Shown here piece by piece: positions 39,682 to 59,533 of a stretch of DNA of 64,000 nucleotides. The stretch spans positions 18,167,501 to 18,231,500 of the forward strand of contig NC_003283.11 in assembly GCF_000002985.6 (NCBI RefSeq), in the 5' to 3' direction. Source of the DNA: Caenorhabditis elegans (taxonomy: Eukaryota; Nematoda; Chromadorea; Rhabditida; Rhabditidae). Within the stretch, counting starts at the first letter, position 1; each line of letters starts with the position of its first letter. Made by a program: the position numbers and the translations under genes. The notes under the pieces are model-generated. The model saw only the letters and a list, made by a program, of their open reading frames with translations, did no database searches and was not told where the DNA came from.

Positions 39682-41585
39682 TTAGCAGTAAGAATAGAAC
39701 AGAATTTCCTTAATAGCCTCGTGAACAACCTCTTTTGTGCATGCACCTCTGAAAATTAAAACATTATTTCAATATTTTTTTTAGTACTCACTCCAAAGGT
39801 GGAACTCGAATGAACAAGTTTCTACGAGACTTCTGCTTCATAAAACTGAAATAGGTGTAGCCGTCGAGATTTCTGGAATAAGAACAATGTTTCAAGGTTA
39901 AATGTAGGGCTTGTATGAGAAGCAGGCATAGTTTCAGGGTCTGACGCCTGCCTCTAACCTGTTCGTGCACTATGGTAAGAAGTCCAAGGCTTCGTGTTCA
40001 GCAGTGCGAAAAGTGGTTCTTTCGCCGCGGCCAACACTTTTCGGGTTCCGTGCCGCACTGTACAGAAGGCTCGTGGCGCAAAACGCTGTCGCGGAAGACG
40101 TTTCCGCGCCTGCGCTCTAGTTGAATGAATGATTGGAGTGGGGCGGAATTTATTGGAAAACTGACTTCAAAGCCACAAGTAGCAGCTTGATATTTCTTCA
40201 AAAAAACTAAAATTCAATTTTCTAGAGCAGTTCTACAGTCTTACAGAACCCCTAAAGTACTAGGAGAATTTCCAAAATATTGGGAATTTGTTGACCCTAA
40301 ATTAAAAAAAAAACCAAAAATTGTTGAAATTTAAAAATTGACAATTTTAGCACCATGGTTTTTAATAATTTTTTGACATTCCGTAGTAGTTATAGTATTA
40401 GCTGGTCATGCTCATGTCAGTTCAACCAGTAGACTAACCCTATTTTCCCACTAACCCTAAACCTACAACTACAGTAACCCTACAGTACCCCTACCCTAGG
40501 GCTCACCTCTCCGCTTTCCCAAAACTCTCCAAACTTGTCCTTGGCCGAATCGATACGTTCATTGACCTCCTTGGCAACCTCCTCACAATTGACCTTGCTT
40601 CTGGCACCAGTTTCAGTTCCAGCACACTTGACTTTACCCCCTTCTGGAATTTTTCCCTTTTTATCCTTTTCTGTATAACCATTGGAATAAGCAGATTGGA
40701 AGATTTCGATCACATTTTTCTGCGAATGAGAACACAGATGAATTGTGAACTGAAATTAGGGAGAAGCTGATGAAGATTGACTAAAAAATGTTTGTACATG
40801 AATTTCTTCAGTAACCATCTTTGCCGCAATTTCGTCTACTTTTCCATATGATTGCTCCATTTTGAACGAGAGATACTTGGATGCTAAAAATAATTCAAGT
40901 TTTTGAATCTAGAGAATATCTGCAAAAATCACTATCAGACTTCACCAATTCATCAAAAACAATAACTGCTGGGCTTCCATCAAAGACGGTTACAACATCG
41001 TGAGGGTTTGTAATCACATATCTCTCCATATCATCATCTTCGAATTTTGGGTATTTGTTGCACATTGAGAGCATATCCGCAATTTCACCTTCAGCGTCAC
41101 TCTGTAATTATTTGCCATGCAGAATACCAACTGAAAATTTGAATTTCCGGCAGAAAAAGAAAAATCGACTGAAAATTTGGATTTTTCACCAAAAATAGAC
41201 TGGAAATTTAAAATTCTCGTAGAAAATCGGTTTTTTTAGAACTGAAATTTGGAATTTAGCGCCAAAAATTGACTGAAAATTTGAATTTCTTGTTAAAGAT
41301 ACTGAATTTCAACCTAAAAATTGACTGAAAATCAGAAATTTTAGTTTATATTTGTCTGAAATTTCAAGTTTCCCGCCAAACATTGACTTAAAATTGAATT
41401 TCCTGCCAAAAATTCGTAGGAAATTTGAAATTCCTGTGGAAAATGACAGAAATTTTGAATTTCCTGTTAAAAATTGACTGAAAATTTGAATTTTCCGCCA
41501 AAAAATTGTTGCAAAATCAAAATTTCTTGCCGAAAATTTTCTGAAATTTTTAATTTCCAGCAAAAAAAGAACTTACTTCCATCAT
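39682..41585 (-). pseudogene. Unrecognised paralogous family, copy C, frame-disrupted
   Basis: Exons 41585-41577 (MME), 41101-40933, 40883-40798, 40749-40507, 39872-39792 and 39748-39682. This copy alone has an intact final exon with acceptor (TTTTCAG|A, encoding GACTKEVVHEAIKEILFYSY then C and TAA). However, exon 4 is 243 bp against 257 bp in A and B: 14 bp covering the LKVES region are missing, so exon 5 is read out of frame and stops early. Read without exon 5 the frame ends shortly past the donor at GEVSPRVGVL. Exons 1-3 encode a normal N-terminal half (DAEGEIADMLSMCNKYPKFE; DVVTVFDGSPAVIVFDELVK). Intron 4 (39873-40506) contains a GC-rich block (about 39990-40140). Copy C is inverted relative to A and B. 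Confidence 0.6.
41110..41575. repeat. Degenerate 31-bp satellite in copy C intron 1
   Basis: About 14 diverged units of the AAAAATTGACTGAAAATTTG form, which is the minus-strand view of the array at 1890-3800. Read along the gene, the units carry TTTTCAG-like acceptors. Copy A has about three units in the same intron (31255-31365). Confidence 0.8.
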
Positions 41586-41895
41586 CTTGGCTGATTTTTT
41601 TTTGATTTCGACGAGGAAAAGACGAGGAACAGAAAAAAGAAACGAAATAAAGTTCGCGAGTAGAAATTGATGTGGGATGAGATAGGGTCAGTTGTTATCT
41701 ATGTTTCTTATGTCTGAATGAGAGTGAAAAATAAAAGGTTTTTGATCTGTTTACATCTAAAGTTTGGTGTAACATTATAGAAATGATATTGAAGTTCAGA
41801 ATGTTCCAAGGTCAAACTAAATTCAAGACAGCTTTCAAAATGTTTTAAATAATATTTTAATTAGCTCAGAGCACAGTTGTTGTATATATAAAACA

Positions 41896-42497
41896 TTTAA
41901 AGGAGGACTAACGGTTCGGACGATTTTGAACGTATAGACCTAAAATTGGCTCACATGAACAAATTTCATAATGAAACTGCTCAAAAAATTTTCAAAATTT
42001 TTTTATGGCGGCTCAAAATTTCGAAAAAATTACACTGATGTTAGCTAAAATCTCGAATTTTGCCAATTTTTCTGTGTCACACCTGTCCGCAGTTGACTTT
42101 TTTGGAATTATCATCCTTTATTGCATATTTGGATAATTCATCTTATTCAATTTTGTTGATTAAGGTACATTTAAAGCCGATAGGTAACCAATTTTGATGA
42201 TTTTTGGTCACCTATCGGCTTTAAATCAACCTTAGTCGACGAAATTGAATGAGCTAAACTACCAAAATATGCAATAAAGGATGATAATTCCAAAAAGTCA
42301 ACTTCGGACAGGTGTGACACGGAAAAATAGCCAAAATTCGAGATTAAGCTAGAATCAGTGTAATTTTTTCGAATTTTTAAACCGCCATTGAAACTTTTTG
42401 AAAAATTATTGAGCAGTTCTATTACGAAATTCGTTCATTTGAGCCCATTTTAAGTATATACGTTCAAAATCGTCCGAACCGTTAGTCCTCCTTTAAA
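41896..42497. mobile_element. TTTAAAGGAGGACTAACGG palindromic element, 602 bp
   Basis: Ends TTTAAAGGAGGACTAACGGT and its complement, arms matching nearly to the centre (about 42200), where AAGCCGATAGGTAACC and GGTCACCTATCGGCTT face each other. No coding capacity. A broken relative is at 45305-45690 and a related foldback with the same centre type (AAGGTACATTTAAG) at 57185-57650. TTTAAA at the ends is consistent with palindromic worm repeats using that target. Confidence 0.8.
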
Positions 42498-42753
42498 AAA
42501 TGGCCGAAGTCGCTGAAGACATCATTAGAAGGTGATTCACCCACACTGCTAGGCACTAGCGCGCCAACGACAATTGAACATGGAAGGTCTGCAACGTATT
42601 GCATAATGATATTTTCAATGTTTAATAACATATTCTGTCCTTAAGAATATGAGGAATAAAATCTATGCTGCTAAACTTTTTTTGAATGATTGCATCAAAT
42701 TTTATAGACGTAAGTATCGGTCCCCATATTAATTATTTTCCATAAATTCTACT

Positions 42754-43190
42754 TTAACGGTGGAGTAGCGCCAGTGGGGATTTTGCCTAAATGCACTTAT
42801 AATAATCCAAAACAACCGAATATCATAAAAAAACACTACAAAAAATTTTAGATTTTTCATAATTTCTGGCCATAGTTTTGCCAAATTGCCAGAATTTTGA
42901 AAAATACTAGGTTTTGAGGAAATTTAAGGAAATGTAGCATGTTTTGACCCCTACAATTATTTAATACAAATATTTTACACAAAATTAAAACATAAAAAAT
43001 GTAGAGAAAATTTTTTTTTGGTCGACTTCCAAAATTATGAGTGGCAAAAATTGAGTGATTGCCATTTTTTGACAGTAAATAAAAAATTTTCAAAAATTTT
43101 TTGAAAAATTTTATCATGATATTTAGTCATTTTAGGACCAAAAGAGTGGCTTTTAATAATTTCCCCACTGGCGCTACTCCAACCTTTGAA
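42754..43190. mobile_element. GGTGGAG palindromic element
   Basis: Starts TTAACGGTGGAGTAGCGCCA and ends TTCCCCACTGGCGCTACTCC. Internal sequence is the reverse complement of the copy at 32244-32680, so it lies in the opposite orientation. Confidence 0.85.
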
Positions 43191-43217
43191 GCGGTGAAAA
43201 ATTGTTTCCATTTCAGC

Positions 43218-43612
43218 ACGTCACCAAAGAGACTGGTCAGGATTTGGACCAGGGGCGTGCGGCAAATTTGCCGAATTTGCCGTGCTCGGCAAATATTGGA
43301 AAAATAGATTTGCCGAATTGGCCGAGCTCGGCAAATTTTGAAAATTGCCGCACACGTCAAAAAATTTGACAGTACAATTTTGACCCAAACTGATGATTTT
43401 TTCGCCAAAAATTTAGTAAAATGAGTTATTTTGATGTTTAAGTAGACACACTACACGGAACTTATTCAGAAACCAGATATTTGTTAAGCATTCAGTAGTT
43501 TTGGCGCTCCAAAAAACATTAAAAAAATACCAAATTTTTCCGAGTTTGTTAAGCACGGCAAATTTTGAGATTTGCCGCACACCCCTGGTCCAAATCCTGA
43601 CCAGTCTCTTTC
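43218..43612. mobile_element. Foldback with TTTGCCGCACACCCCTGG ends
   Basis: AGAGACTGGTCAGGATTTGG at the left is exactly complemented by CCAAATCCTGACCAGTCTCT at the right. Inside, GTGTGCGGCAAAT arms enclose a loop resembling the one at 24553-24938. The extra perfectly paired outer 20 bp are missing from the other copy, so here flanking or outer-element sequence is also inverted. Confidence 0.75.
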
Positions 43613-43633
43613 CAATCTTTTTCGCTACATATA

Positions 43634-45223
43634 ATGCATGATAACTCAGAAATTACTGGTGCTCTATTGGGTTTTGCCTTTTTCAACTTCTTCGCCTTTT
43701 TCATATTGGCTTTTTGGATTCTATTGCTTCAACAATTCACCATTGATAGTGAGATTGCAATTTATTGTTCCGCAGTTGTTTGGAGCATTAATATCGTCAG
43801 TGAGTTGTTAATTGGAAACCTTTGGTGTTTTACATTTTATGCTAGATTTATGGGATTATTCAAGTAATGTGGTGAAATTTAAAAAAAAAAAGGTAGATTT
43901 CAATACACATTTTGCTATATGTATTCAAATAACCTCAAAAACATGTATTTCAATCAGGGGTGGGGGTTTGCCAATTTTTCTGAAACTTTTAATTCCGGCA
44001 AATTTACGGTTTGCCGATTTTTCTGAAACTTTTAATTCCGGCAAATTTACGGTTTGCCGATTTTCCAGAAGTTTTAAACTCCTGTCGATTGCCGGTTTGC
44101 CAATTTGCCGGAGTGGGGAAGATGTGAAAAACTACTTCTATAGTGCCAAAATGACCAAATATCATGATAAAAATTTTCAAAAAATTTTTGAAATTTTTTT
44201 TACTTACTGTTATTACGAAACCATGAGTTCATGAGAATGCCTACTTTGTGGCGCGAAAGTAGCGGCAGCGGAGAGAACGTGCGGTGACGAGAGATTTAGG
44301 TGCCTTCGCTACGAGATATTCCCGCGCCAAAACGGTAGGCATTCTCATGATCTCATGGTCTCTTAATAATAGGTGTGAAGTTTTTGCCACTCATAATTTT
44401 GGAAGTCGACCAAAAAATTTTTTTTCCTTCCTTTTTTATACTTTAGCTTTGGTTTAATGATTTGTATTAAAACATTGTAGGGGTCGGAACAGCGGCATTG
44501 GTCTGAATTTCCTCGAAAACTCATAGTTTTCAAAATTCTGGCAATTTGCCAAAACTTTATCTAAGCCCGTTTTTCAGGTCCACCAATCATTGAGAGACTA
44601 TTCCGTTGCGACAAAAATTGGAAAGCACTTTTCGCATGCGGATTGAGCACGATCGTTTCTGCTTGTACCATCGGCTCATCTCCATTATACGAATGTAGTC
44701 TCATCGCCTTTGCTCTCTTTTTAGGTTGGTTTTCAGTAGCATTTTCCAGAGTCATGTTAAATTTCAGCTGTTCATTTTGGAATTGGATATTTGTTGCTTA
44801 AAACTCCTCAAACCATCGAAAATAGCACGATTTAGATCCTTGATTTGTTTAGAATGATCATGAGCCTGATCGTTACCCAAATGGGGTTTGCGATGCGAAA
44901 CGATGTTTCCTTCGTCGCTGACAAAATATCTTTTTGGTATCTAAGGGTATTTTTCTTTGTACATTACATTTTTATGTGCGCGTTCACCTACTTCATTGGG
45001 TTGGCAAATCTATATCCACTAGAAGGTTTGTTTAGGCAATATACATAGAACAATAGAGAGAATTACAGATTCTTTGGAAAATCGAGAGATCACCCAATTC
45101 TTAGAATATGTGCCCGAGGCTCGAGACAAATCGATCGACTTCTTCACGCTAAAATTCGAAGAATTGAGTAAAGCTCTCAACCATTGCAAAAAGCTCAGAA
45201 AGGAGTTGGAGGAAATGGTCTGA
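43634..45223 (+). pseudogene. Multi-pass membrane protein gene with one in-frame stop
   Basis: Unrecognised. Exons 43634-43799, 44578-44724, 44768-45025 and 45069-45223, all phase-1 junctions, read 241 codons, interrupted once by TAG at 44833-44835 (…TIENSTI*ILDLFRMIMSL…). Hydrophobic spans: LGFAFFNFFAFFILAFWILL, IAIYCSAVVWSINIV, ALFACGLSTIVSACTIG, CSLIAFALFLAVHFGIGYLL and YLRVFFFVHYIFMCAFTYFI. The C-terminal ~50 residues form a charged helix (FEELSKALNHCKKLRKELEE). Apart from the TAG, frame, splice sites and codon use are intact, so it is either a young pseudogene or a segregating nonsense allele, or a truncated ~121-residue protein is made. No family recognised. Intron 1 (43800-44577) contains TTTGCCG repeat and two nested elements. 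Confidence 0.55.
44110..44560. mobile_element. Old GGTGGAG-type element carrying a nested hairpin
   Basis: Landmarks of the 32244-32680 family are recognisable (GACCAAATATCATGATAAAA; TTTTTGCCACTCATAATTTT; ACATTGTAGGGGTCGGAACA), but both terminal GGTGGAG ends are lost. It is interrupted at 44219-44368 by a short hairpin whose ends are ACCATGAG...CTCATGGT with GAGAATGCCTAC arms. The hairpin must be younger than the host element. Confidence 0.65.
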
Positions 45224-46133
45224 ATTAATTAATTGTACTTTTTTTTGTTGATAAATGTTCATAAGATTTATTGATTACCATGTTTTTTTTTCAATAAAAT
45301 ACTTTAAAGGAGGACGAACGGTTTGGACGATTTTGAACGTATTATATATACCCAAAATAAGGCTGCCGCCGCGCCGGCCTCACGGCATCCCTTACGCCGC
45401 ACGGATAGCGCGGCGCGGAACCTTGAACGTGTCGGCCGCTTCCAAATAACTTTGCACTACGTTGCGCACACACCAAGCTACTCATTTCACGGCAAGCTGC
45501 GGAACCCGAACGTGTCGGCTGCTTCCGAATAACCACCTCTCGCACTTCTGTGCACACACACCGCGGCGTCGGCGTGCTCAAATAAACAAATTACGTAGTG
45601 AAACTTCTCAGTAACGTTACAAAAGTTTTTTATCGCCGCTCAAAATTTCGAAAAATTGTACTGATTTTAGCTAAAATGCCAAATTTTGCCCGATCAATAA
45701 TCTCAATGCAAAAATTGCCAGGAAGACCAACCGAAACGACAGCACATCATCGCCAGGACCAGAACGACCAACTCTGCAGCTTGATTATTTTTTCTCATAT
45801 TGCTGCCAACAACAGAAACGTGTTTGACCTTTCATGACAAAATCATTAATTTTTGTTTATTCTCTTTAAGATTTAAAAATTCTCACGTGACATCGACCTC
45901 CCCCCTCAGCCATGTCTCCATCAATCAATCGCTAAATCAGTACTCGATTCAAGTTCCACACCTGAAGTCTCGCTGTCTGCTCCATCAACTCCTAGTGCTC
46001 GTCGTTTGATTTTGATCCGTTCGTGCTCCAAGCTTAACAATGTAAGCATTAAATTTTCTCTTGCTCAGGATTCGGAAGGGAGCTAGGCCAGGCAGCTTTT
46101 CACTTTTTTCGATGTGTTTCACACAAACGAATA
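45224..46133. other. Spacer with broken palindrome and GC-rich repeat
   Basis: AATAAA at about 45294 follows the membrane gene. 45305-45690 is a copy of the TTTAAAGGAGGAC palindrome split by a GC-rich block (45360-45590) with GCCGCCGCGCCGGCCTCACG and GTGTCGGCCGCTTCC motifs. The same GC-rich unit occurs in the inverted-repeat arms (47570-48060 and 49040-49530). 45700-46133 has no recognised feature. Confidence 0.55.
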
Positions 46134-48261
46134 AGACGGCAAATTGCCGATTTGCCGAACGACAGGTCATACTTGACTAACTTGACCTACCTTTTGTGAA
46201 CATTCTTTCACAAGCATTGTAGTAATATGAATCACTCATCAGGGCACCCATTGCGGTTGCAGATCTGGATCGAACTGCTTCCAATAGCGAATCCAGGAAA
46301 ACTAGCAATACTTGTCTTTTCTGATCAACTTGACCGACGCTTTTTTGACAGTGAAACTGCTTCGCATGAATCAGAAGTCCACCATTCCCGGCCACCGCTA
46401 CACCGAATCGAATATCAATTGGTACAGAACGCAGCCCGGTCACAGTGATGTCGACCAGATAATACTCAGGTAATTCTATGACTTCAATGACATCGAACTC
46501 CACTTCCCTGTCGGCTGGTCGGTTGACAAGACGTTGAATTATTTCTTCTGAAAAATAAGAAACTATTCATTAGTTCCATAACCAATCTGAATTACCCTTT
46601 GAGAATGTTCTATCGCACGCTTCAAAGATATACTTGTCATATATCAGATCGCCAATTGCGGATGGAGATCTTGAATGAATTGCTTCCAATAGTTGATCCA
46701 GGAAATCATTAATCACACTTTTTGTCTGAGTGACCTGACTGACTGCGTTTTGGCAGTTGAATTGTTTTGCATGAGTCAAGAGAGCACTGTTCCCTTTGAC
46801 CTTTACATCAAATGCAATATCAATTTGTACAGATCGGAGTCCGGTCACAGTGATGTCGACCAAATAATATATCTCATTAATTTCTACAATACGTTTGACA
46901 TCAAAATCAAAAGTTCTGTCGGCTGGTCGGTTGACAAGGCGTTGGACGATTTCGTCTAAAGAATAAAAAACCACTCATCAGTCTCATAACAAATCTGAAT
47001 TACCTTTTGAGAATTTTCTTTCGCACGCTACAAAGATATATTTGTCATCTATGAATGCGCTAATTGTGGTGGCATCTCTTGATCGAATTGCTATCAATAG
47101 TGAATCCAGGAAAATGTTTATTACACTCTTTCTCTGATCAACCTGACTGACGGCGTTTTGGCAGTTAAATTGTTTCGCATTAGTCAAGAGAGCACTATTT
47201 CCCAAAATCTCTACATCAAAGGCAATATCAATTGGTACAGATCGGAGCCCGGTTACAGTGATGAGGACGGTAAAATGTCCCGCATTTTGTTTATAAGCTG
47301 TAACAATGAACTCGACATTTCTGTCTGCTGGGAGGTTGACAATACGTTCGATGATTTCGTCTGAAATATAGGAGAATGTTCAAAAGTTATATAGATACAA
47401 GGTGGATCATGATTTTGTGAGATCGTCATTCGCTAGGAATTCTCGATAGTTTACTCGTGCAATCCGAATTAAGATCGTATTCCTTGTAAAAACTAACTTT
47501 GGATAATGGCAAACATGTTTGGAACACGACTTATGTTAAAATTTACGAGACAACATTTTGTGCCTAAAACTAGGGCTCCCGCAAAGGCGCCTCCGCCGGC
47601 CTCAGCTGTCGCCGCGCCGGCCTCACGGCGTCATCCACGCCGCATGTACAATGAGGTGCGTAACCGCGAACGTCAGAACTGGTCAATTTTCTTTTAATTC
47701 AATCAGAAACTCAGAAAAATCCAAATTACGAGCAGTATGTAGTCTACTGGTAAACTAGCCTTTTCTTTCGAAATTTATACGCTCGGGCTGGAAAGAGCCT
47801 CTCATAATGGGCAGAAGCCCTGGCAAGAGGAACTTTTGACAACTTGTAAAGTAAGGGCGCTATAAGGTCATAAGCTGAATGTACCCTAATGTATAGTGCG
47901 ACGCGGAACCCCGAACGTGTCGGCCGCTTCAAATAACTACCTCTCGCACATCATTTCACGCACACTGCGGCGCGCGGCTTCAGCGCGCGGCTTCGGCGCA
48001 AGGCCGGCGGGCGTGAAGCCTGCGTGAGGCCCGCATTTCGCGCCTCACTCAGCTGGGAGCCCTACCTAAAACTGAGTTTTATAACAACACATGGTGTCAT
48101 TCTGTACCATTACAGGTTGATCTAAAAAAAATGAGAGAATGTTTTAAATCATGCAAAATTTGTTAAGAATTCTGACTCTGAATTTCCGCAAATCCTGGAA
48201 AATCTAAGTAGATCAAATCGAAAAGGGACACTCTGGCATTAAATGTAACATAAAGCATGTA
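46134..48261. repeat. Left copy of large inverted duplication
   Basis: 46835-48261 pairs with 48839-50265 (coordinates sum to 97100). 46134-46845 pairs with 52231-52942 (sum 99076). The two series overlap for 11 bp (46835-46845, ACCGGACTCCG on the minus strand), so the left copy is a continuous 2.13-kb block whose right-hand counterpart is split by 1,976 extra bp. Translations of the paired frames are identical wherever compared, so divergence is very low. Confidence 0.9.
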
Positions 48262-48838
48262 TTTGTCCAAGGGTTACTCTAACTGTGTCCCCAGTTGCAC
48301 TAAATAATTTCACCTAAGCTAAGTGTATAGAAATCTGTGTAAAAACCCAGGGTTGTAAGCCTGAAGGCTCAAAAAATGCAAGTCGCCAAAAGTCGTAAGA
48401 AAGTTGATTTGACAAGGATCTATAGTAGTTTAACAGCGGGATACGGTTTATGTTAAAGTAAATGGAAGGAACTTAATTGAACTATCAATTCAATTCAAAT
48501 CATTCAACGAGTCCGCATTATTCTGACTTTTACAGTGCTCTTTTATTTCACTTACCCTTTGAAAACTTTCTCTCGCATGCTTTGAATACATATGAATCAG
48601 AAATCAGGGCGCCAATGGCAGATGCTGATCTTGATCGCATTGCTGCCAACAGCGAGTCCAGGAAATCAAACAGATTTTTGGTCTTATCTACCAGATTGGG
48701 GTTGTTTTGACAGTTCAATTGTTGTGCAAAAGCCAAGAGTGTACTATTCCCTGTCACATCTACAACAAATCTCATATCAACTGGAACAGAGCGGAGTCCG
48801 GTGACAGTGATGTCGACGAAGTAATACACCTTTGTTTC
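46191..48838 (-). pseudogene. NTF2-like multi-domain gene, inverted partial copy with chimeric exon
   Basis: Exons on the minus strand: a 5'-truncated exon (about 48838-48556), then 47360-47004, 46955-46596 and 46547-46191, all phase 1. Each encodes a sheet half then a helical half of an NTF2-like domain (VDITVTGLRSVP...; FLDSLLAAMRSRSASAI, then ACERKFSKG). The third exon is 360 bp: its first part equals the right copy's exon 50145-50501 and its second part equals exon 52124-52480, fused in frame. The first exon lacks its beginning exactly where the inverted arm starts (48839). After 46191 there is a donor but no further exon; the arm ends at 46134, and read-through meets TAG within five codons. 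With neither a start nor an end it is most likely non-functional, unless it draws on unseen exons. Confidence 0.7.
48262..48838. other. Unique spacer at the centre of the inverted duplication
   Basis: A 577-bp segment between the inner arms. It contains the 3' part of one NTF2-like exon (minus strand, 48556 to about 48838; NNPNLVDKTKNLF, ISDSYVFKACERKFSKG) and part of its downstream intron. That exon resembles the second half of exon 50145-50501. It is the only part of the palindrome with no counterpart on the right. Confidence 0.75.
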
Positions 48839-50265
48839 TACATGCTTTATGTTACATTTAATGCCAGAGTGTCCCTTTTCGATTTGATCTACTTAGATTT
48901 TCCAGGATTTGCGGAAATTCAGAGTCAGAATTCTTAACAAATTTTGCATGATTTAAAACATTCTCTCATTTTTTTTAGATCAACCTGTAATGGTACAGAA
49001 TGACACCATGTGTTGTTATAAAACTCAGTTTTAGGTAGGGCTCCCAGCTGAGTGAGGCGCGAAATGCGGGCCTCACGCCGGCTTCACGCCCGCCGGCCTT
49101 GCGCCGAAGCCGCGCGCTGAAGCCGCGCGCCGCAGTGTGCGTGAAATGATGTGCGAGAGGTAGTTATTTGAAGCGGCCGACACGTTCGGGGTTCCGCGTC
49201 GCACTATACATTAGGGTACATTCAGCTTATGACCTTATAGCGCCCTTACTTTACAAGTTGTCAAAAGTTCCTCTTGCCAGGGCTTCTGCCCATTATGAGA
49301 GGCTCTTTCCAGCCCGAGCGTATAAATTTCGAAAGAAAAGGCTAGTTTACCAGTAGACTACATACTGCTCGTAATTTGGATTTTTCTGAGTTTCTGATTG
49401 AATTAAAAGAAAATTGACCAGTTCTGACGTTCGCGGTTACGCACCTCATTGTACATGCGGCGTGGATGACGCCGTGAGGCCGGCGCGGCGACAGCTGAGG
49501 CCGGCGGAGGCGCCTTTGCGGGAGCCCTAGTTTTAGGCACAAAATGTTGTCTCGTAAATTTTAACATAAGTCGTGTTCCAAACATGTTTGCCATTATCCA
49601 AAGTTAGTTTTTACAAGGAATACGATCTTAATTCGGATTGCACGAGTAAACTATCGAGAATTCCTAGCGAATGACGATCTCACAAAATCATGATCCACCT
49701 TGTATCTATATAACTTTTGAACATTCTCCTATATTTCAGACGAAATCATCGAACGTATTGTCAACCTCCCAGCAGACAGAAATGTCGAGTTCATTGTTAC
49801 AGCTTATAAACAAAATGCGGGACATTTTACCGTCCTCATCACTGTAACCGGGCTCCGATCTGTACCAATTGATATTGCCTTTGATGTAGAGATTTTGGGA
49901 AATAGTGCTCTCTTGACTAATGCGAAACAATTTAACTGCCAAAACGCCGTCAGTCAGGTTGATCAGAGAAAGAGTGTAATAAACATTTTCCTGGATTCAC
50001 TATTGATAGCAATTCGATCAAGAGATGCCACCACAATTAGCGCATTCATAGATGACAAATATATCTTTGTAGCGTGCGAAAGAAAATTCTCAAAAGGTAA
50101 TTCAGATTTGTTATGAGACTGATGAGTGGTTTTTTATTCTTTAGACGAAATCGTCCAACGCCTTGTCAACCGACCAGCCGACAGAACTTTTGATTTTGAT
50201 GTCAAACGTATTGTAGAAATTAATGAGATATATTATTTGGTCGACATCACTGTGACCGGACTCCG
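48839..50265. repeat. Right inner arm of inverted duplication
   Basis: Exact reverse complement of 46835-48261 as far as I compared. It includes a GC-rich dispersed repeat (49040-49140 and 49430-49530; GCGCGCGGCTTC / GCCGGCGCGGCG) and the first NTF2-like exon of the plus-strand gene. Frames such as 49168-49356, present in both arms, derive from the repeat and are not genes. Confidence 0.9.
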
Positions 50266-53200
50266 TTCTGTTCCAATTGATATCAGATTCGCTGTAGGTG
50301 TGAAAGAGAATACTATACTTCTGGTTCAAGCACAACAATTGCATTGTCCTAACAACCCTAATCTGGTAGATAAGACCAAAAATCTGTTTGTTTTCCTGGA
50401 CTCGTTGTTGGCAGCAATGCGATCAAGATCAGCATCTGCCCTTTGCGACCTGATGACGGACTCGTATATCTTTGAAGCTTGTGAAAGAAACGTCTCAAAG
50501 GGTGAGCGATCATAATTATGTTGGTCATACAGCTAGATTAACACTATGACAAATACATGATTCATGTCACATGTGGTGTCAGAGTGTTTTGATGCCTCAT
50601 CATTTTGATCTACGTAGATCACGCAGACTGTTCACCATATTTCGCATAAGAGTGCTGACGTCACTTTATTTTGGAAAACAATTCCCGCCTTTTTTTTGTA
50701 GATCAGAATTTAATGGGTCAGCCTGGCACCACGTGTTGTTATAACACTCAGTTTTAGTCCAAAATTTGAAATCTGAAGAACCGTATATCTTCTATTAATA
50801 TGGCCTCCCTATTAGACTTGCACTCCCTAATAGTATTGCAAACGGGAAGGCCATCGAAAAATAGTATTGCAGCCATATTAATAGAAGAAATACGGTAGCT
50901 TATCCAGCTTCCTTTAATCATCCAGCTGCTCCACATTATTTAAATGTTACTGATTTTCTAAACCTAGTATACCAAAATTTAAGGTCTTATACAGTGCGTC
51001 CAACTTCTATAGGACCCCCCTCAATTTTGGTGGTTTGAGACTTCCTGAACATTTTTGTGGAAAACTGCCAATGCCATTTGATTTTAAATGTCAAAAAACA
51101 TATACCCGTATAATTTCATGATGATAGCTCAAAAACTACGCGCGCCCGGGCTGAAAGTCAAAAAAACGGCTGAAATTTTAAAAACTTATCAAATTATTTT
51201 TTTGAGATGATTACATAAAAATTATCTTAACATCTCAATTGCTCATAACAAACTAAAATATGTCACGCGAAAGTGCTGGGAAGCAAACGGGACCGTCCTG
51301 TACCACTTTTCAGTGCTTCTGAGCCCAGTACTTTGCTCCCAGTAGTCCTAATATCACAAAAAGTTTGGAAAATGTTAGTGTATATCCAAAGATTGTTCCT
51401 GTGAAATTTTGTCTAATTTGGAGCATTTTCAGATGTTTTATGGCAAAAATAGTTTGTAAGCCAAATTTTTTGGTTAAAAATGCCTCAGCTACCTGTGTCA
51501 TTGAATTATTTTTGCCATAAAACATCTGAAAATACTCCAAATTAGACGAAATTTCACAGGAACAATCTTTGGATGTACACTAACATTTTCCAAACTTTTT
51601 GTGATATTAGGACTACTGGAAGCAAAGTACTGGACTCTCAAGCTCAAAAATGAGGTACAGAACGGTCCCGGTTGCTTCCCAGCACTTTCGCGTGACATAT
51701 TTTAGTTTGTTATGAGCAATTGAGATGTTTAGATCATTTTTATGTAAACATCTCAAAAAAATAATTTGATAAGTTTTTAAAATTTCAGTGCTTTTTTCGA
51801 TAAAATTTCAAAAAACTGGGGGTCTTATAGAAGTTGGACGGCCGTTTTTTTGACTTTCAGCCCGGGCGCGCGTAGTTTTTGAGCTATCATCATGAAATTA
51901 TACGGGTATATGTTTTTTGACATTTAAAATCGAATGGCATTGGCAGTTTTTCACGAAAATGTTCAGTAAATCTCAAACCACCAGAACTGAGGGGGGTCCT
52001 ATAGAAGTTGGACGCACTGTTCTAAATAAGTAGCTCATTTCTTATGCAATCTGTCACGTCTTTGCGTCCACAAAATCCTGACCAACCCTGTATGCCCCGA
52101 ATGATTATTCTCCTATATTTTAGATAAAATCATTGAACGTATTGTCAACCTACCAGCAGACAGAAATGTTGAGTTCAATATCACAGCCTATAAAGAAAAT
52201 GCGGGACATTTTACCGTCCTCATCACTGTAACCGGACTCCGATCTGTACAAATTGATATTGCATTTGATGTAAAGGTCAAAGGGAACAGTGCTCTCTTGA
52301 CTCATGCAAAACAATTCAACTGCCAAAACGCAGTCAGTCAGGTCACTCAGACAAAAAGTGTGATTAATGATTTCCTGGATCAACTATTGGAAGCAATTCA
52401 TTCAAGATCTCCATCCGCAATTGGCGATCTGATATATGACAAGTATATCTTTGAAGCGTGCGATAGAACATTCTCAAAGGGTAATTCAGATTGGTTATGG
52501 AACTAATGAATAGTTTCTTATTTTTCAGAAGAAATAATTCAACGTCTTGTCAACCGACCAGCCGACAGGGAAGTGGAGTTCGATGTCATTGAAGTCATAG
52601 AATTACCTGAGTATTATCTGGTCGACATCACTGTGACCGGGCTGCGTTCTGTACCAATTGATATTCGATTCGGTGTAGCGGTGGCCGGGAATGGTGGACT
52701 TCTGATTCATGCGAAGCAGTTTCACTGTCAAAAAAGCGTCGGTCAAGTTGATCAGAAAAGACAAGTATTGCTAGTTTTCCTGGATTCGCTATTGGAAGCA
52801 GTTCGATCCAGATCTGCAACCGCAATGGGTGCCCTGATGAGTGATTCATATTACTACAATGCTTGTGAAAGAATGTTCACAAAAGGTAGGTCAAGTTAGT
52901 CAAGTATGACCTGTCGTTCGGCAAATCGGCAATTTGCCGTCTGCCGATTTGCCGGAACATTTAATTTTTGCTAACTTGCCGATTTGCCGTTTGTCGGATA
53001 TCAGATTTGCCGGAAATTTTTAGAGATATTTTTCATGAGACGGAAACTGTGCCTTTTTGAAACTCTTTTTTCCGTTTTCTTCTGATATTTCTTATAATTT
53101 GCTTACTTTTTAAAGCACAGAGCGGTTTTTACTACGTGGCCGTAAAATAGGAAAACTCGGCCACCTTCACAATATGGATACGGAACATTTTCTCAAAAAT

Positions 53201-54799
53201 CGCTACGGTGGAACTATAGAACCCCTTTTCGAGAACATTCTCGTCAAGTTTCAGAAACATCCCACGTCAAAAATCCCAGATAAATTATTGGCCGAGTTTT
53301 TGATTTTTCTAGGCCACGTAGTAAAAGCCGCTCTGTGAAAGTAGCTGTAGGAAAATTCATAGGATGCTTACAATGTTGCCGATTGAAATTGAAACTCTGA
53401 AATTTCCAAAAAAAAATGTGCAAAACCACAATATGCCAAAAATTTTCGGCACTCGCCGTTTTTTTCTGCAAATTCGGCAAATCGGCAACTGGTCGGTTTG
53501 CCGATTTGCTGGAAAATTGCAATTCCGGCAATTTGCCATTTGCAAAAAATCGTTTGCCGCCCACTCCTGATGTGATCCAGGGATGTGCGACAAATCTCGA
53601 AATTTGCCGTTCTTAACAAACTCCGAAAAATGGTATATTTTTGGAGCACCAAAACTACTAAGTTCTTATTATCGAAAAAAGACGATGGCACAAATTTCTC
53701 ATAATTTATTTTTGATCTACCTGTTGAACTTGACTCCGCCCCCAATCTTATTGCCGTTGTTTTTTTTTGTGGCCGCCTAGTCAACAAGGTAGATCAAAAA
53801 TAAATTATGAGAAAATTGTGTGATCGTATTTTTTTGATAATAACGCACATCTGGTTTCTGAGTAAATTCGGTGTGGTGTGCCTGCTGCTTAAACATCAAA
53901 AGAACTCAGTTTTGTGTCGTGATGTTTGGATGTCCCATCAATGGTTTGATCTACAAAAAATGCGCGAATTTTTGTACTAACCATGCATCTCTTCTCCCGC
54001 ATTTTTGGTAGATCTACGTAGATCGAACCGAAATGGGACACTCTGACACCACGTGATTTTACTAAATTATTGAGGTTCATAGTTTTGGCCAAATTTGCAA
54101 TTCGGCAAATTTTCCACACATCGCTAATGTGACTAATGAATATTTTTCCCTACTTCAGAACAAATCATCGAACGTATGGTCCAGCTACCAGCCCACAGAA
54201 ATGTCGATTTCAATATCACATCTGTAAAAGATAAAGGGGAACATTTTGTGGTGGACATCACTGTGACCGGAGTTCGCTCTTATCCAATTGCCATTGCCTT
54301 CAAGGTAGCTGTGATGGGGAATAGTGCACTCTTGATCCACGCAAAACAATTCAACTGCCACCGTAAACCATTCATTGAGCCATTGAGCCATTTTGATGAG
54401 AAAAAGGATGTAATAACCGAATTTCTGGACAATTTTCTGATCGCAGTTCGTCACCGTTTTGCACGATCCCTGGGTAACATTATAACTGACATTTTTGTCT
54501 ACAAATCGTGCGAAGGAAATGTTTCAAAGGGTAAGTCAAAGGCAAAGGGTTTTGTAACTAATCTCGTAGCTAACGCATTTATTTCAGAAGATTTCATCAA
54601 ACATATTATGAGCTTGCTGAAAACCCAAAGGGTTGACTTTGATATCCAATCTGTTCAAGAGACGCAGGATAATTATATGGTCACAATTAAAGTCACTGGA
54701 TTGTATGCAGAACCTGTGGATATTCTTTTTGAAGTTACAAAGTATATGCGTGGAACCGTAGTTATGCTTACTGAAGCAACACAACTTCACTGTTCTTAA
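49740..54799 (+). CDS. NTF2-like tandem-domain gene, at least six exons, 5' end not found
   Basis: Exons 49740-50096, 50145-50501, 52124-52480, 52529-52885 (each 357 bp), 54159-54530 (372) and 54588-54799 (last), all phase-1 introns. Each exon starts with the sheet half of one module (DEIIERIVNLPADRNVEF, DITVTGLRSVPIDI, ALLTHAKQFNCQ) and ends with the helical half of the next (FLDSLLIAIRSRDATT, YIFVACERKFSKG). Thus five complete helix-plus-sheet modules follow an initial half module, and the gene closes with a lone sheet half (LTEATQLHCS). In the one-domain gene at 37995-38496 the intron falls at the same point. This helix/sheet order is that of nematode NTF2-like domains; molecular function is unknown. 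No start or signal peptide is visible upstream in the arm, and the expected first helical half is present only on the other strand (48556-48838). The intron before 54159 is 1.27 kb of elements. AATAAA at about 54815. Confidence 0.65.
50266..52230. other. Segment present only in the right copy
   Basis: Covers the second part of exon 50145-50501, the intron with a small hairpin (50772-50897; CCGTATATCTTCTATTAAT and complement), a 1.03-kb foldback (50993-52021), and the first part of exon 52124-52480. Its ends are the 11-bp matches ACCGGACTCCG at 50255 and 52231. Removing it gives exactly the structure of the left copy. Confidence 0.8.
50993..52021. mobile_element. 1.03-kb foldback, mariner/Tc-like ends
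   Basis: Ends CAGTGCGTCCAACTTCTATA (left) and the complement TATAGAAGTTGGACGCACTG (right). Arms pair almost throughout (ACTACGCGCGCCCGGGCTGA; TGTCACGCGAAAGTGCTGGG); the centre is near 51505. TA precedes the left end; TT follows the right end, so one target base may have mutated. No transposase frame. A longer relative is at 62184-63599. Confidence 0.75.
52231..52942. repeat. Right outer arm of inverted duplication
   Basis: Reverse complement of 46134-46845. It contains the second part of exon 52124-52480, exon 52529-52885 and about 55 bp of following intron. Homology to the left copy ends in a TTTGCCGTCT motif of the TTTGCCG repeat, so a repeat unit lies at the breakpoint. Confidence 0.9.
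52943..54158. mobile_element. Intron made of several foldbacks
   Basis: TTTGCCG repeat (52920-53000 and 53440-53560); a hairpin at about 53117-53340 with CACAGAGCGG...TACTACGTGGCC arms; a hairpin at about 53697-53822 (CTCATAATTTATTTTTGATC and complement); and flanking GTGTGCGGCAAAT-type pieces (53580-53640 and 54060-54125). All lie in the intron before exon 54159-54530 and lack coding capacity. Confidence 0.65.
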
Positions 54800-55402
54800 A
54801 ATTTACATACAAAAATAAAGTTTATTAAAAATTAAACTGTCATTTCTTCTATAATTACCATTAGGCCTTTCATGAAAACGAGGTGTAAAGAGGGCCCACC
54901 ACACCCGCACTATCACATTCTGTCTACTGTGGCCGACTCTGCGCGGGACCTCGCGCCACTATACCTGTGGCGAGAGTGTGGAAGGCCTAGTCGTGGAAGG
55001 CCTAGTTACCATAGGCTTGCCAGCACACGAAACAGAACAGCCTGAATTGAAAAACCCGTGGTTTTCGTGACTCACGTGCCCATTCAAGCAAGTTGACTAG
55101 AATAGCGATAAAAATAAAAAGCTCTAATTTTGCAGATTTTTCGAATAGACAAGGGATTTGAGAATAGTAAAAACGTGAACCAGAGTGTAAAAAAGTGTTA
55201 AAAATTAGAAAAAAAATGGCTAAAAAGTTTTTTTACCCTCTGGATAACCTCATAAAACTTTATTCATTTCGTTAATTAAGACAAATACAAATGCAGAGAA
55301 GATAAGAAAAAATAGACGGTATTTAGCTGACACCCCGCAGGTCAGTTTTTTTGTTTTTTTGGTTTTTAGTGTTTTTTGGAAAAAAATCTTTTTGTAATTA
55401 AA
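54800..55402. other. Convergent 3' spacer
   Basis: AATAAA at about 54815 ends the NTF2-like gene. 54860-55020 contains a GC-richer dispersed repeat with two copies of GTGGAAGGCCTAG and GGGACCTCGCGCCACTATAC. The remainder is AT-rich. No gene supported. Confidence 0.5.
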
Positions 55403-56909
55403 TTACGTGTTTGAACAATTCAAACAAATCACCACAAATAGAATAGAATATTGGATGAGATTATTAAAGTTTAAGACTAATTCTTTTTCTGAGTATTTAG
55501 AGGAGAGTATAAAAATTTTAAGAGTTGTTGTTATCCGATAAATCCTGGAGTCTTTTACAAACTTTCCGAGTGACGAGTCTGAAAATTCATCAACTAATAG
55601 TTTTGCTTAACTAACTGAGTTACCGGAAAGTCAGATAATGTAGTGTTAGAGCTGAATGTATTTTTAACGGTCACTTGGTCAGCTCCCAAATTTGATGATT
55701 GACAACATTTACCTGTGACTTCAAAACTTTCCTGTATTAAGCTTTTGTCAATTGGCTAAAATTAGGATCATTATAAGATTGAGGTAAAAAAGTAAACGGA
55801 GGGCACTTACATATTCATCGGAGAACGCCAGAATATATGTGAATAATTTCGTCGTGCCATAAAAATCGTGAAGTTCACCATTCACTAAATTTTCCAGCAT
55901 TACAAGTTGATCATCAGCATAAACATTTTGTAATGAATTATCGATGGGTAATGTCTGAAACAGCAGAAATATTTGTGTGAAGGTTTGTGTGGCTGTAAAT
56001 GGGTATCTCGGTAATCGAAAACAAAATCCGAAATCGAAAACCTCGAAAACATGCACGGTTAGATATTTTTTTTAGTTAATTTTCTGAAAGAGCATAGTTG
56101 AAAACATTTTTCGGTGCAATTTTAAAAAATTTGAGGGTATAGTTTTTCAGAAAAATTAAATTTTGTCAATATTTTTTTATTCCGAATTTTTGAATTTCAC
56201 TTGGAATTTTGTAAAATAAGTTATTTGTTACGGATTTTTTTAAATATTAAAAACAACATTACAAAATAAACATTTCAAACTAGGAATTTCACAAGTTAGA
56301 AGTGAACAATTTATTTGAAACAGCTAATCAGGTTCTTAAGTTACGCCAGTTTTGGCCGAAGGTACTCTGAAAAAAAAAGATGTTCTGAAAACTTACTTTT
56401 TCAAATACACACTTGTCATGATCATTCATTGCATTCAATTTTAATGTCTTGAATATATCAGAACGACAGCTGACCACTACCGAAAGTGCGTTTGGCATTG
56501 ATGAAATACTCCGTAAAGTTAGTGTAAAATCGTTCACGATCAGAGAAGACGGTCTCAAATCAAGAATCCGTTTGAGATGTTTCAAAAAGGTTACGTCTGT
56601 CTTATTCAAACTGGATTCCTCACTAATTGTGATTGAAAGATGAGAAAGCACACGCATTGATGACAGAACACTTTCTAAATCATCTGAGCACAACTCTATG
56701 TAATTCTTGTTTTTGATAAACTCCTCTTGTCCATCATGCACTCGCTGACATCCCTCTGGGTGATTTTTGTAGATTACTTTGATCGGGGAGAGTTTTGTCG
56801 TACTGAACAACAAGAACTCAACCGATACTTGATCGGCGTCTTCCTTTGTGTCAATTTCGACAATTGGAGAATTTTTGAGTCGTTTCATTAGAAACTTAGA
56901 TAATGACAT
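55403..56909 (-). CDS. F-box-associated (FTH/DUF38-like) protein lacking an F-box, 283 aa
   Basis: Exons 56909-56397, 55954-55811, 55731-55713 (a 19-bp micro-exon) and 55578-55403; frames close exactly at a TAA. Exon 1 (MSLSKFLMKRLKNSPIVEID; KNHPEGCQRVHDGQEEFIKN; DDLESVLSSMRVLSHLSITI; LKRILDLRPSSLIVND) has the typical order of the C-terminal half of nematode FBXA proteins. Exon 2 continues it (VMLENLVNGELHDFYGT). No F-box precedes it: an in-frame stop lies just upstream of the ATG, and no F-box exon is seen up to 57100. It may have lost the F-box or the first exons may lie farther away. If made, it would be a substrate-binding part without Skp1 contact. The last two exons are the least certain part. 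Paralogue at 59534-61780. Confidence 0.55.
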
Positions 56910-59533
56910 TTTTGTGAACTAGGACCAACCGACTGCAGATTAAACGGCTGAAAGTTAGATATTTGAAAAAGGAGATTCTTCAAGCAATGATAACCATTAT
57001 GGAGTAACAGAAAAGAACAGTTAGGAAAAGAAACGAATGAGCAATGAAAAAAAACAGGGACACTTAGCAAGAACATGGAACGAATGAAAGAAAAATGAGG
57101 AAAATCGGGTTATATGTATACACAGCCTTCTTGCTCATGCTAAAGGTGATGCAGTCAAATATTTTGTTCGCTTTATTTGATTTGAAAATTGTCGGAAAAA
57201 AACCGAATTTTATAATGAGCCATCTTGTAAACTTCTCAAAAAAAGTTATGAAGGCTCGAAAAATGTCCTGAAACTAGTTAAAAATTTGAAATTTGACTGA
57301 CTTGTCAAGCGGCTGGAAACTAACCTTTTCAAAATCACCGTCTAATTTTGGGTATATGTAGTAGTTGATTCTCTTGCGTTTTCACCTTGAATAAGGTACA
57401 TTTAAGGTTGATGGACCAAATGTTACCAAATCTGGTGGCCCATCGATCTTAAATGTACTCGAATCAAATTGAAGATGAATCTATACCCAAAATTTGACGG
57501 TGATTTCAAAAAAAAAAATTTTCAGACGCTGCGACATTGATAAATTGGTCAAATGTGAACTTTTAACTATGTCATTTTCTGAGACGCCATAACTATTTTG
57601 TGAGAAGTTTTCAAGAAGTTTCATTATGAAATTCGGTGTTTTCAGACAATTTAAAGTCTAATAAATCAATATAAAAGTTGACTTTGGGAGGTATGCAGTA
57701 ATTTATTAAGGCTTTCGAAATAACTTTTAAAGTGAAACAATAAAAAAAGGTGACACTTTGTTCTTATTTATACATTTTTCATGACGTCACTACATTTCAA
57801 CACATTTCCCAACTATGGGTGGTAAACCGGACGTCCGGTTTCCGTATTACAGATTTTTTTTTACATTTTGACAGTTTTCGTCTTACTTTAAATTGACTAG
57901 TTTTTGTTCAAAATTAGTGAAACTGGAACCTAAAATGAAAATTCGCAACATATGAAAAATTGAACTATCTAATTAAATTAATTATAATTTAAGGATTAAT
58001 TCCAAAAAATCCGATGTTTTATTGAGAAAAAAACAATTTTTTCGAAAAAATACAGCACTTGTCTTTAGAAAATATTGAAAAATCTAGACACGGACAGCAA
58101 AAAAAAGAGTGATAACAGCCGTAGTCCTATGTTTTCTATCAAACTTTCTCACAACCAAATTTTCTTATCATACATATGCATGATTATACAGAACAATTTA
58201 TCAAAAATATGTAAAGGGACAGTATTGGATAATTTTTTTCCTTAACAAGGGAAGTCGAAAAACTGAACCCCGGACTTAGCTGCCCCGGTCCAGGTTCAGC
58301 AAAGTTATGACGTTTTTAAAGTGGCTAGACCACCTTTTTAAAAAAATTTCAAACATTTCAAAAAAAAACGTTTTTCTGAAAAGTGTTTTTCGACTTTCCT
58401 GTTAAGTGTTTTCAAATATTTTGACACGTTTTAAGCATAATGTTTGTTAGCGATTTTTTGCAATTTTGCCAAAAGAATTAATTTAACACATTTGGACAAT
58501 GTACTCGAACATTAAAAAAAAAAGAAATTAAAGGTGGAGTAGCGCCAGTGGGGAAATTGTTAAGAACCCCTGCTTTGGTCCATAATGGCCAAATATCATG
58601 ATAAAACTTTTCAAAAATCTTTTGAATTTTTTTATTAACTGTCAAAAAGTGGCAATTACTCAATTTTTGCACTCATAATTTTGGAAGTCGACCAAAAAAA
58701 ATTTTTTTTTCGACATTTTTATGTTTTAATTTTATTTAAATTATTTGTATTAAAACATTGTAGATCGAAACATGCGACATTTCTTTAAATTTTCTCAAAA
58801 GCTCGTATATTTTAAAATTTTACCAATTTGCCAAAACTTTGACCGGAAATTATGAAAAACCTAAAAATGTTTCGGAGTGTGTTATTATGATACTTGGCTA
58901 CTTTGAATTATTCATAATTCAAAGTAGAATCCCCATTGGTGCTACTCCACCTTTAAGAAGGTTTTTATCCGACCGAGTTTAATCAAAGTTTGTAAAATAA
59001 ATAACGTATTATAAATATAAATGAAATCTATGATTGAATTTAACAGCTTTGAAATTAAACTTGTCAAAATCAAATTTCAAATAAAGCAAACTTCTGTTAT
59101 ATCTCAGAAAAAAACATATAGTTTTGTTTTGACAGAATTTCGAGAAGAAGGGTTCCTGAACTCCCTAGTTCGCAAACTAAATTGCTTGTTGTTTTTTTAT
59201 TTAAAAAAAACTCAATTGATGAACCTGATGAATGAATGAATGAATGAAAAAAACATGAATGAATAAAAAGAATTGGGTCAAAAACTGCTTTGGCAAAATC
59301 AAATTTTACAAAAAAGAATGGGAATGATTAATTCAAAATGAATTTGTAAATGAGAAAGCAGGAAGCGTCGTGAGTGTAACAATTGAGTTGAACCGGTCTG
59401 TTGGATGATATGCTGTTGAATTCTTGAGAATCAATAAATTCTCAGAGAAAGACCTTGCTCTGGAATGTCCGAAACCGGTTCCTGCAATGAAACATTTTAC
59501 AGAGGTATGCCACTCTCTCAAGGTTCTTACAAG
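56910..59533. other. Gene-free region with foldback elements
   Basis: 57185-57650 is a foldback centred near 57430 (AAGGTACATTTAAG facing CTTAAATGTACTCG). 57800-58480 is AT-rich with poly-A/T runs. 58528-58956 is a GGTGGAG palindromic element. 59230-59270 has GAATGAATGAATG short repeats. Frames at 59021-59239 and 59333-59521 show no splicing or family signal. Confidence 0.6.
58528..58956. mobile_element. GGTGGAG palindromic element
   Basis: Opens TTAAAGGTGGAGTAGCGCCA and closes GGTGCTACTCCACCTTTAA. Internal landmarks match 32244-32680 in the same orientation. Near its right end a short inverted AATTCAAAGTA pair is specific to this copy. Confidence 0.85.

What the first reader, a model, noticed from the sequence alone, without database searches (positions are those of the whole stretch)
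46134..52942. Near-perfect inverted duplication with an asymmetric 1,976-bp difference
Two nested pairs of arms (46835-48261/48839-50265 and 46134-46845/52231-52942) share one left block. The left copy is the right copy minus 50266-52241, with the breakpoint at an 11-bp direct match inside two homologous exons. This is the signature of a deletion between tandem paralogous exons after (or during) inverted duplication, and identical arms imply recent origin or ongoing gene conversion.
Basis: seen in the sequence. Interest (0 to 1): 0.75.

Follow-up and report, generated by a model that had tools for sequence, protein, structure and literature searches.

The report
Recent inverted duplication splitting worm gene
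A worm gene built of repeated exons appears to have been recently copied backwards next to itself, so that one copy kept its upstream neighbour and the other its downstream end, which makes a clear but ordinary kind of DNA copying accident readable step by step.

Summary
The reverse complement of 46134-48261 equals 48839-50265 plus 52242-52942 with one mismatch in 2128 bases; the left copy lacks 1976 bp, at an 11-bp match between two homologous exons. The genome's sizes fit the C. elegans N2 reference (chromosome V, about 18.21 Mb; species recalled, named by no call).

New here: the two inner and two outer joints can be polarised. The spacer holds part of an exon of the same tandem-exon gene. 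The intron crossing the left inner joint (48261/48262) is a paralogue of the R2-R3 intron; across the right inner joint (48838/48839) that homology is at background. The right outer joint lies in a repeat that continues past it; the left one does not. So one ancestral gene seems to have been split: the left copy kept the 5' neighbour, the right copy the 3' end. The left tract (46134-48838) carries all three new joints, including the deletion, which spans a 1-kb foldback Tc3-like element.

Best reading: one recent template-switching event (MMBIR/FoSTeS type). The kind is known in C. elegans; this is an unusually readable new member. Cloning artefact, a separate later deletion, and gene conversion are not excluded.

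The parts
46134..48261 (-). Left arm (2128 bp), inverted copy lacking 1976 bp
   Evidence: 1 mismatch in 2128 against the right copy
48839..50265 (+). Right arm, first part (1427 bp)
52242..52942 (+). Right arm, second part (701 bp; 712 bp if the 11 shared bases are counted)
50266..52241 (+). 1976-bp segment present in the right copy only: second part of exon R2, intron with foldback element, first part of exon R3
50255..50265 (+). 11-bp match at the deletion breakpoint, copy in R2 (other copy 52231-52241 in R3)
48262..48838 (.). Single-copy spacer (577 bp)
   Evidence: own-genome search lists it complete only here; 4 further matches are partial, to exons of this locus
48556..48838 (-). Truncated exon Sp with GT donor; identical to R2 at 39 of 47 and 197 of 239 sites in the two exon parts; cut at the joint 48838/48839
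48261..48262 (.). Inner left joint, read as ancestral
   Evidence: 55-nt stretch across it matches the R2-R3 intron 41/55; 0 of 1000 control stretches as good
48838..48839 (.). Inner right joint, read as new; 4-nt (TGTA) microhomology inferred by comparison with R2 (2 nt with R4)
46133..46134 (.). Outer left joint, read as new
   Evidence: no window hit spans it
52942..52943 (.). Outer right joint, read as ancestral
   Evidence: 11 of 14 other repeat hits in the window span it
49740..50096 (+). Exon R1 (no Met in frame)
50145..50501 (+). Exon R2
52124..52480 (+). Exon R3
52529..52885 (+). Exon R4
54159..54530 (+). Exon D1, outside the duplication
54588..54799 (+). Terminal exon D2 with stop, followed by AATAAA
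47004..47360 (-). Exon L1 (= R1)
46596..46955 (-). Hybrid exon L23 (first part R2, second part R3), open in frame
46191..46547 (-). Exon L4 (= R4)
50991..52020 (.). Foldback Tc3-like non-autonomous element (name recalled), inside the missing segment
   Evidence: 180-bp inverted ends 96% identical, predicted single-strand DNA hairpin -500.6 kcal/mol, no shuffle control at this length, dispersed relatives

Best explanation
An ancestral gene on the + strand with tandem exons in the order Sp, R1, R2, R3, R4, D1, D2 was rearranged by a replicative template-switching event. Read from right to left, synthesis copied R4 to R1 and reached 48839 in the intron before R1. It then switched strand, by a few bases of microhomology, into exon Sp and copied Sp's 3' part, the intron and R1 to R4 in the other direction. 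On the way it slipped from R2 to R3 at 11 shared bases, skipping the foldback element. It finally switched into the left flank at 46133. The new tract is 46134-48838. Upstream exons and the 5' part of Sp were lost. Shown: the arms, the deletion and its direction, the truncated exon. Supported by tests within this one genome: which inner and outer joints are ancestral. Inferred: the single event, the strand order, the 4-nt microhomology, and that the gene lost its original 5' end.
For: Arms and breakpoint. Hybrid nature of L23. The Sp-to-L1 intron aligns with the R2-to-R3 intron over 238 columns at 68.5% (pairwise E 9e-29, mostly a dispersed repeat) across joint 48261/48262, and again before the acceptor (59 columns, 71%). 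The 55 nt across this joint that lie outside the repeat match 41/55; 1000 control stretches from the window have mean 26.8, maximum 36; the stretch across 48838/48839 scores 27. The 18 nt upstream match 14/18 at 48261/48262 and 6/18 at 48838/48839; 1 of 200,000 random 18-mers reaches 14. 11 of 14 other repeat hits span the right outer joint, none the left one. R4's donor has the D1 acceptor downstream; D2 ends in TAA and AATAAA follows. TGTA shared with R2 at 48838/48839; 0.5% of random sites do as well. Foldback element in the missing segment. A paralogous gene 1.8 Mb away begins with a Met exon that runs into a half repeat; no such exon was recognised in this locus.
Against: No second strain, species or read set could be examined. 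The microhomology at 48838/48839 rests on R2 standing in for the lost part of Sp; with R4 as stand-in it is 2 nt. The outer left partner is unknown, so its microhomology cannot be read. The outer-joint test uses a repeat of simple composition whose hits reach only 15-32 bases into the arm. The own-genome DNA search with the stretch across 48261/48262 did not list the R2-R3 intron among its 40 matches. The deletion could be later than the duplication. R4 and D1 have no close exon partner.
Confidence: 0.55

Rival explanations
1. Inverted duplication first, as a symmetric or nearly symmetric structure, and later a separate slippage or recombination deletion between R2 and R3 in the left copy, helped by the foldback element.
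For: The 11-bp direct match flanks a 1-kb foldback element; deletions between short repeats around palindromes are established (recalled). Nothing in the sequence times the deletion.
Against: Needs an additional event; the left tract already carries two other new joints.
Confidence: 0.25
2. An older inverted duplication whose arms are kept identical by ongoing gene conversion, as proposed for other C. elegans inverted repeats (PMC1803023). This can be combined with any of the other readings, so it is not exclusive of them.
For: One mismatch in 2128 bp; gene conversion between adjacent inverted worm genes is documented (PMC3966223 section 4.3; PMC1803023 parts 1-3 of 4).
Against: No positive sign of conversion between the arms was seen, though no dedicated test was possible with one genome; recent origin is simpler.
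Confidence: 0.15
3. Fold-back of a broken end in Sp of a minus-strand gene, copying through D2, followed by loss of the left D1-D2.
For: Single-copy spacer next to the arms, as in the human fold-back class (PMC3907307 passages).
Against: Needs loss of the left 3' end and a further joint right of D2. Beyond the arms only four inverted matches of 66-83% identity were found between 39001-46133 and 52943-60000; the longest is a dispersed repeat.
Confidence: 0.12
4. Cloning or assembly artefact of the clone-based reference.
For: Long near-perfect inverted repeats are unstable in cloning hosts; the reference was clone-built (both recalled).
Against: One arm mismatch and a precise asymmetric deletion are not typical of a mis-join (judgement); the sizes fit a finished reference (recalled).
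Confidence: 0.08

Closest known systems
C. elegans hsp-16 inverted repeat and F44E5.4/F44E5.5 inverted pair (PMC1803023)
   Same: Adjacent inverted gene copies, near-identical arms, short single-copy spacer.
   Different: Those pairs hold whole genes and have counterparts in C. remanei and C. briggsae (for hsp-16 degenerate in C. briggsae); here the copies are partial, asymmetric, and no other species was examined.
Young partial and chimeric gene duplicates of C. elegans, the newest often adjacent and inverted (Katju and Lynch, as told in passages of PMC2728529 and PMC3449122)
   Same: Adjacent, inverted, partial, with almost no divergence.
   Different: Here the joints can be polarised from within one genome and the gene appears split between the copies.
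MMBIR / FoSTeS complex rearrangements (PMC2621351, passages)
   Same: Inverted duplication with deletion, short shared sequence at joints, and the second inverted switch that would restore a viable chromosome.
   Different: Single locus in one strain; not observed as it happened; microhomology at two of three joints inferred or unreadable.
Human fold-back inverted duplications with disomic spacer (PMC3907307, passages)
   Same: Single-copy spacer; short inverted microhomology expected at the spacer edge.
   Different: Spacer 577 bp against 766-70,466 bp there; interstitial here, not next to a terminal deletion; the outer flank rule is not met.

Membership tests
Young inverted partial gene duplicates of C. 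elegans | Very low divergence between copies | tested here: met
   1 mismatch in 2128
Young inverted partial gene duplicates of C. elegans | Adjacent and inverted | tested here: met
   577-bp spacer
Young inverted partial gene duplicates of C. elegans | Copies differ in exon content (partial or chimeric) | tested here: met
   Left: Sp, L1, hybrid L23, L4; right: R1-R4, D1, D2
MMBIR / FoSTeS rearrangement | Complex: inverted duplication mixed with deletion | tested here: met
MMBIR / FoSTeS rearrangement | Microhomology of a few bp at joints | tested here: inconclusive
   11 bp at the deletion; 4 bp at 48838/48839 inferred through R2, 2 bp through R4; outer left joint unreadable
MMBIR / FoSTeS rearrangement | All joints made in one event | not testable with these tools
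   Needs other isolates
Fold-back inverted duplication | Single-copy spacer between arms | tested here: met
Fold-back inverted duplication | Copy next to the spacer keeps its ancestral outer flank | tested here: not met
   Left outer joint 46133/46134 looks new, right outer joint ancestral
Actively maintained inverted repeat (PMC1803023) | Structure shared with other Caenorhabditis species while sequence diverges | not testable with these tools
   No relatives of this genome are held

The most novel reading that the evidence does not exclude
One single nascent tract of about 2.7 kb carries three template switches (strand swap into an exon, skip across a foldback transposon relic between two tandem exons, strand swap into the flank). 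It split a working tandem-exon gene within N2's recent past, so that the intact gene still segregates in other C. elegans isolates and the locus is a datable natural record of a multi-switch replication accident triggered by a transposon palindrome.
Probability: 0.4. Interest if true: 0.5.

Novelty: new member of a known kind. Interest (0 to 1): 0.36.

Why it matters
As a rule an inverted duplication is hard to polarise without an outgroup (my judgement). Here a tandem-exon array supplies an internal outgroup (the R2-R3 intron and the exon pairs), so ancestral and new joints can be told apart within one genome. That makes a specific, cheap prediction: other C. elegans isolates may carry an unsplit gene. 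It also puts a foldback transposon relic inside the segment that was skipped, a concrete case for testing how such palindromes promote deletions in animals.

Tried and rejected
Naming the gene family: Pfam gave nothing above its cut-offs for the 11 exons or frames and the one predicted protein that I scanned. A PDB sequence search with one exon, R4, gave none. One protein search, with the frame 54140-54799, found only the window's own product, to which the database's precomputed table assigns PF26530; my own Pfam scan of that protein did not show it. AlphaFold2 on R4 with 10 aligned repeats gave mean pLDDT 57.4 (helix, four strands, two helices), too weak for a fold search, so none was run. 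An NTF2-like fold is a guess from memory and is not claimed.

My first grouping of exons into an alternating A-B array was wrong in part: R4 is not a close partner of R2. The pairs are R1 with R3 and R2 with Sp; notebook entry 1 carries the older wording.

Fold-back of a broken end in Sp as the main route was dropped because the outer joints point the other way. Residual palindromy beyond the arms was looked for; there are four matches of 66-83% identity, and the longest (42754-43187 against 58530-58956) is a dispersed repeat. The other three were not followed.

Whether the lost 5' part of the gene sits elsewhere: searching the genome with the first exon of the paralogous gene found only that gene itself at E up to 1; a diverged exon could be missed.

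Literature: eight searches of the held open-access library. None of the titles and abstract beginnings listed mentions this locus; the lists show at most 20 of up to 212 papers, and I had no gene name to search with. Seven papers were opened: PMC3966223 (outline, section 4.3), PMC1803023 (parts 1-3 of 4), and passages only of PMC2728529, PMC3213143, PMC3907307, PMC2621351 and PMC3449122. Supplementary files could not be read.

Full report
Where it is. The window is bases 18,167,501-18,231,500 of contig 5 of a genome of 100,286,401 bases in 7 contigs; contigs 5 and 1 are 20,924,180 and 15,072,434 bases long. From memory these are the sizes of the C. elegans N2 reference, chromosomes V and I. 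No call names the species. The locus is then chromosome V at about 18.214-18.220 Mb.

The observation. Left and right arms were compared base by base. The reverse complement of 46134-48261 equals 48839-50265 followed by 52242-52942, with one mismatch in 2128 (48021/49079). The breakpoint sits on 11 shared bases, and 1976 bp are missing on the left. Another direct match between the same two exons, 15 bp, was not used. The own-genome search lists the 577-bp spacer complete only here. At a mutation rate of 2.3e-9 per site and generation (recalled), one difference corresponds to about 1e5 generations, with a 95% range of 2.6e3 to 5.7e5. Gene conversion would make the duplication older than that.

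The gene. The locus holds tandem exons, all open in frame: R1-R4 (357 bp each), D1 (372 bp) and terminal D2 on the + strand; L1, hybrid L23 and L4 on the - strand; and a truncated exon Sp on the - strand inside the spacer. Their splice sites put the introns in phase 1 (my reading). D2 ends in TAA at 54799 and AATAAA follows. A diverged paralogous gene at 16.418-16.420 Mb on the same contig has, as I read it, a first exon with a Met and a hydrophobic leader followed by the second half of a repeat, two full repeats, and a terminal half repeat with a stop. By that model both copies here lack a first exon; no annotation was available to check this. R1 has no Met in frame. R1 and R3 differ with dN/dS 0.33, R2 and Sp with 0.40, which suggests protein constraint before the rearrangement.

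Direction of the 1976-bp difference. Exons were compared separately before and after the breakpoint. R1 is closest to R3 in both parts (0.92 and 0.80), R2 to Sp in both parts (39 of 47 and 197 of 239 sites). L23 changes partner: identical to R2 before and to R3 after. R4 and D1 have no close partner. The left copy is therefore the derived one for this difference.

Which joints are old: inner pair. If the gene once read Sp, R1, R2, R3, R4, D1, D2, then Sp-R1 and R2-R3 look like two copies of one two-exon unit. The intron of the first unit, read across joint 48261/48262, aligns with the intron of the second over 238 columns (68.5%, pairwise E 9e-29), and again over 59 columns before the acceptor. 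Most of the long stretch is a dispersed repeat: of 38 other genome matches listed, 36 begin 22 nt or more inside the arm and 2 begin nearer to the joint (40 of 42 candidates scored; the R2-R3 intron itself is not in that list). So I tested the 55 nt largely outside the repeat: 32 on the spacer side, 23 on the arm side. They match 41 of 55; 1000 control stretches from the window outside the locus reach a mean of 26.8 and a maximum of 36. The stretch across 48838/48839 scores 27, which is background. Joint 48261/48262 is thus read as ancestral and 48838/48839 as new; the latter also cuts exon Sp.

Which joints are old: outer pair. The right one lies in a repeat whose other copies in the window run across it (11 of 14 other hits with at least 11 bases on each side), and R4's splice donor has the D1 acceptor downstream. 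The left one is spanned by none; its only hits are itself and the right arm. The repeat hits reach 15-32 bases into the arm, so this test is weaker than the inner one. The 3' neighbour stayed with the right copy, the 5' neighbour with the left copy.

Mechanism. All three new joints (46133/46134, the 1976-bp deletion, 48838/48839) lie on the left tract. The simplest account is one nascent tract with three template switches, the second inverted switch restoring chromosome orientation, a possibility that the MMBIR paper names (PMC2621351, passages). At 48838/48839 the arm ends in TGTA, and R2 has TGTA just before the place where Sp is cut; 0.5% of random sites match R2 this well. With R4 in place of R2 only 2 nt are shared. 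This is inferred, since Sp's own 5' part is lost. The missing segment contains a 1030-bp foldback element. Its ends match dispersed copies, among them four inverted pairs spanning about 2.34 kb at 76% identity, which fits Tc3 (a capped list; name and length of Tc3 recalled). A long hairpin between short direct matches is a plausible cause of the skip, but neither cause nor timing is shown.

What it does now. Neither copy looks able to make the original protein: by the paralogue's model the right copy lacks a start and the left copy lacks both ends. Transcription was not examined. Read-through RNA would form a long hairpin. C. elegans directs ERGO-1 class siRNAs to about 80 poorly conserved, often duplicated genes (PMC3213143, passages); whether this locus is among them is unknown to me.

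Compared with what is known. Adjacent inverted, near-identical gene copies with short spacers are a described C. elegans class (PMC1803023, parts 1-3 of 4 read; PMC3966223 section 4.3). Young worm duplicates are often partial or chimeric, and the newest often adjacent and inverted (PMC2728529 and PMC3449122, passages). The single-copy spacer resembles human fold-back duplications (PMC3907307, passages), but the fold-back rule for the outer flank is not met. This is a new member of a known kind. What seems uncommon is that the exon array lets the event be read without an outgroup.

Noticed in passing
1882-3817: Tandem array of a 31-bp unit, 62 copies, 90% matches, with higher-order periods of 125 and 156 bp.
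   Followed up: no
5341-6317: Tandem array of a 78-bp unit (multiple of three), 94% matches over 5341-6109; perhaps a repetitive coding stretch, which is a guess.
   Followed up: no
6947-9251 and 10772-11119: Arrays of a 19-bp based unit in opposite orientations, the first about 2.3 kb long.
   Followed up: no
about 50354-50425 in R2 and the matching part of Sp (48556-48838): R2 and Sp are 95%, 96% and 91% identical in three overlapping 60-column windows against 75-86% in the other six scored, possibly an older gene-conversion tract between the two exons.
   Followed up: partly
47571-48064 and its copy in the right arm: A dispersed element with terminal TAGGGCTCCC motifs inside both arms; many partial genome copies. 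The only arm mismatch lies in it.
   Followed up: no
42754-43187: Member of an abundant dispersed repeat: 39 further near-full-length copies at 87-90% identity among the 40 of 1359 candidates that were scored.
   Followed up: partly
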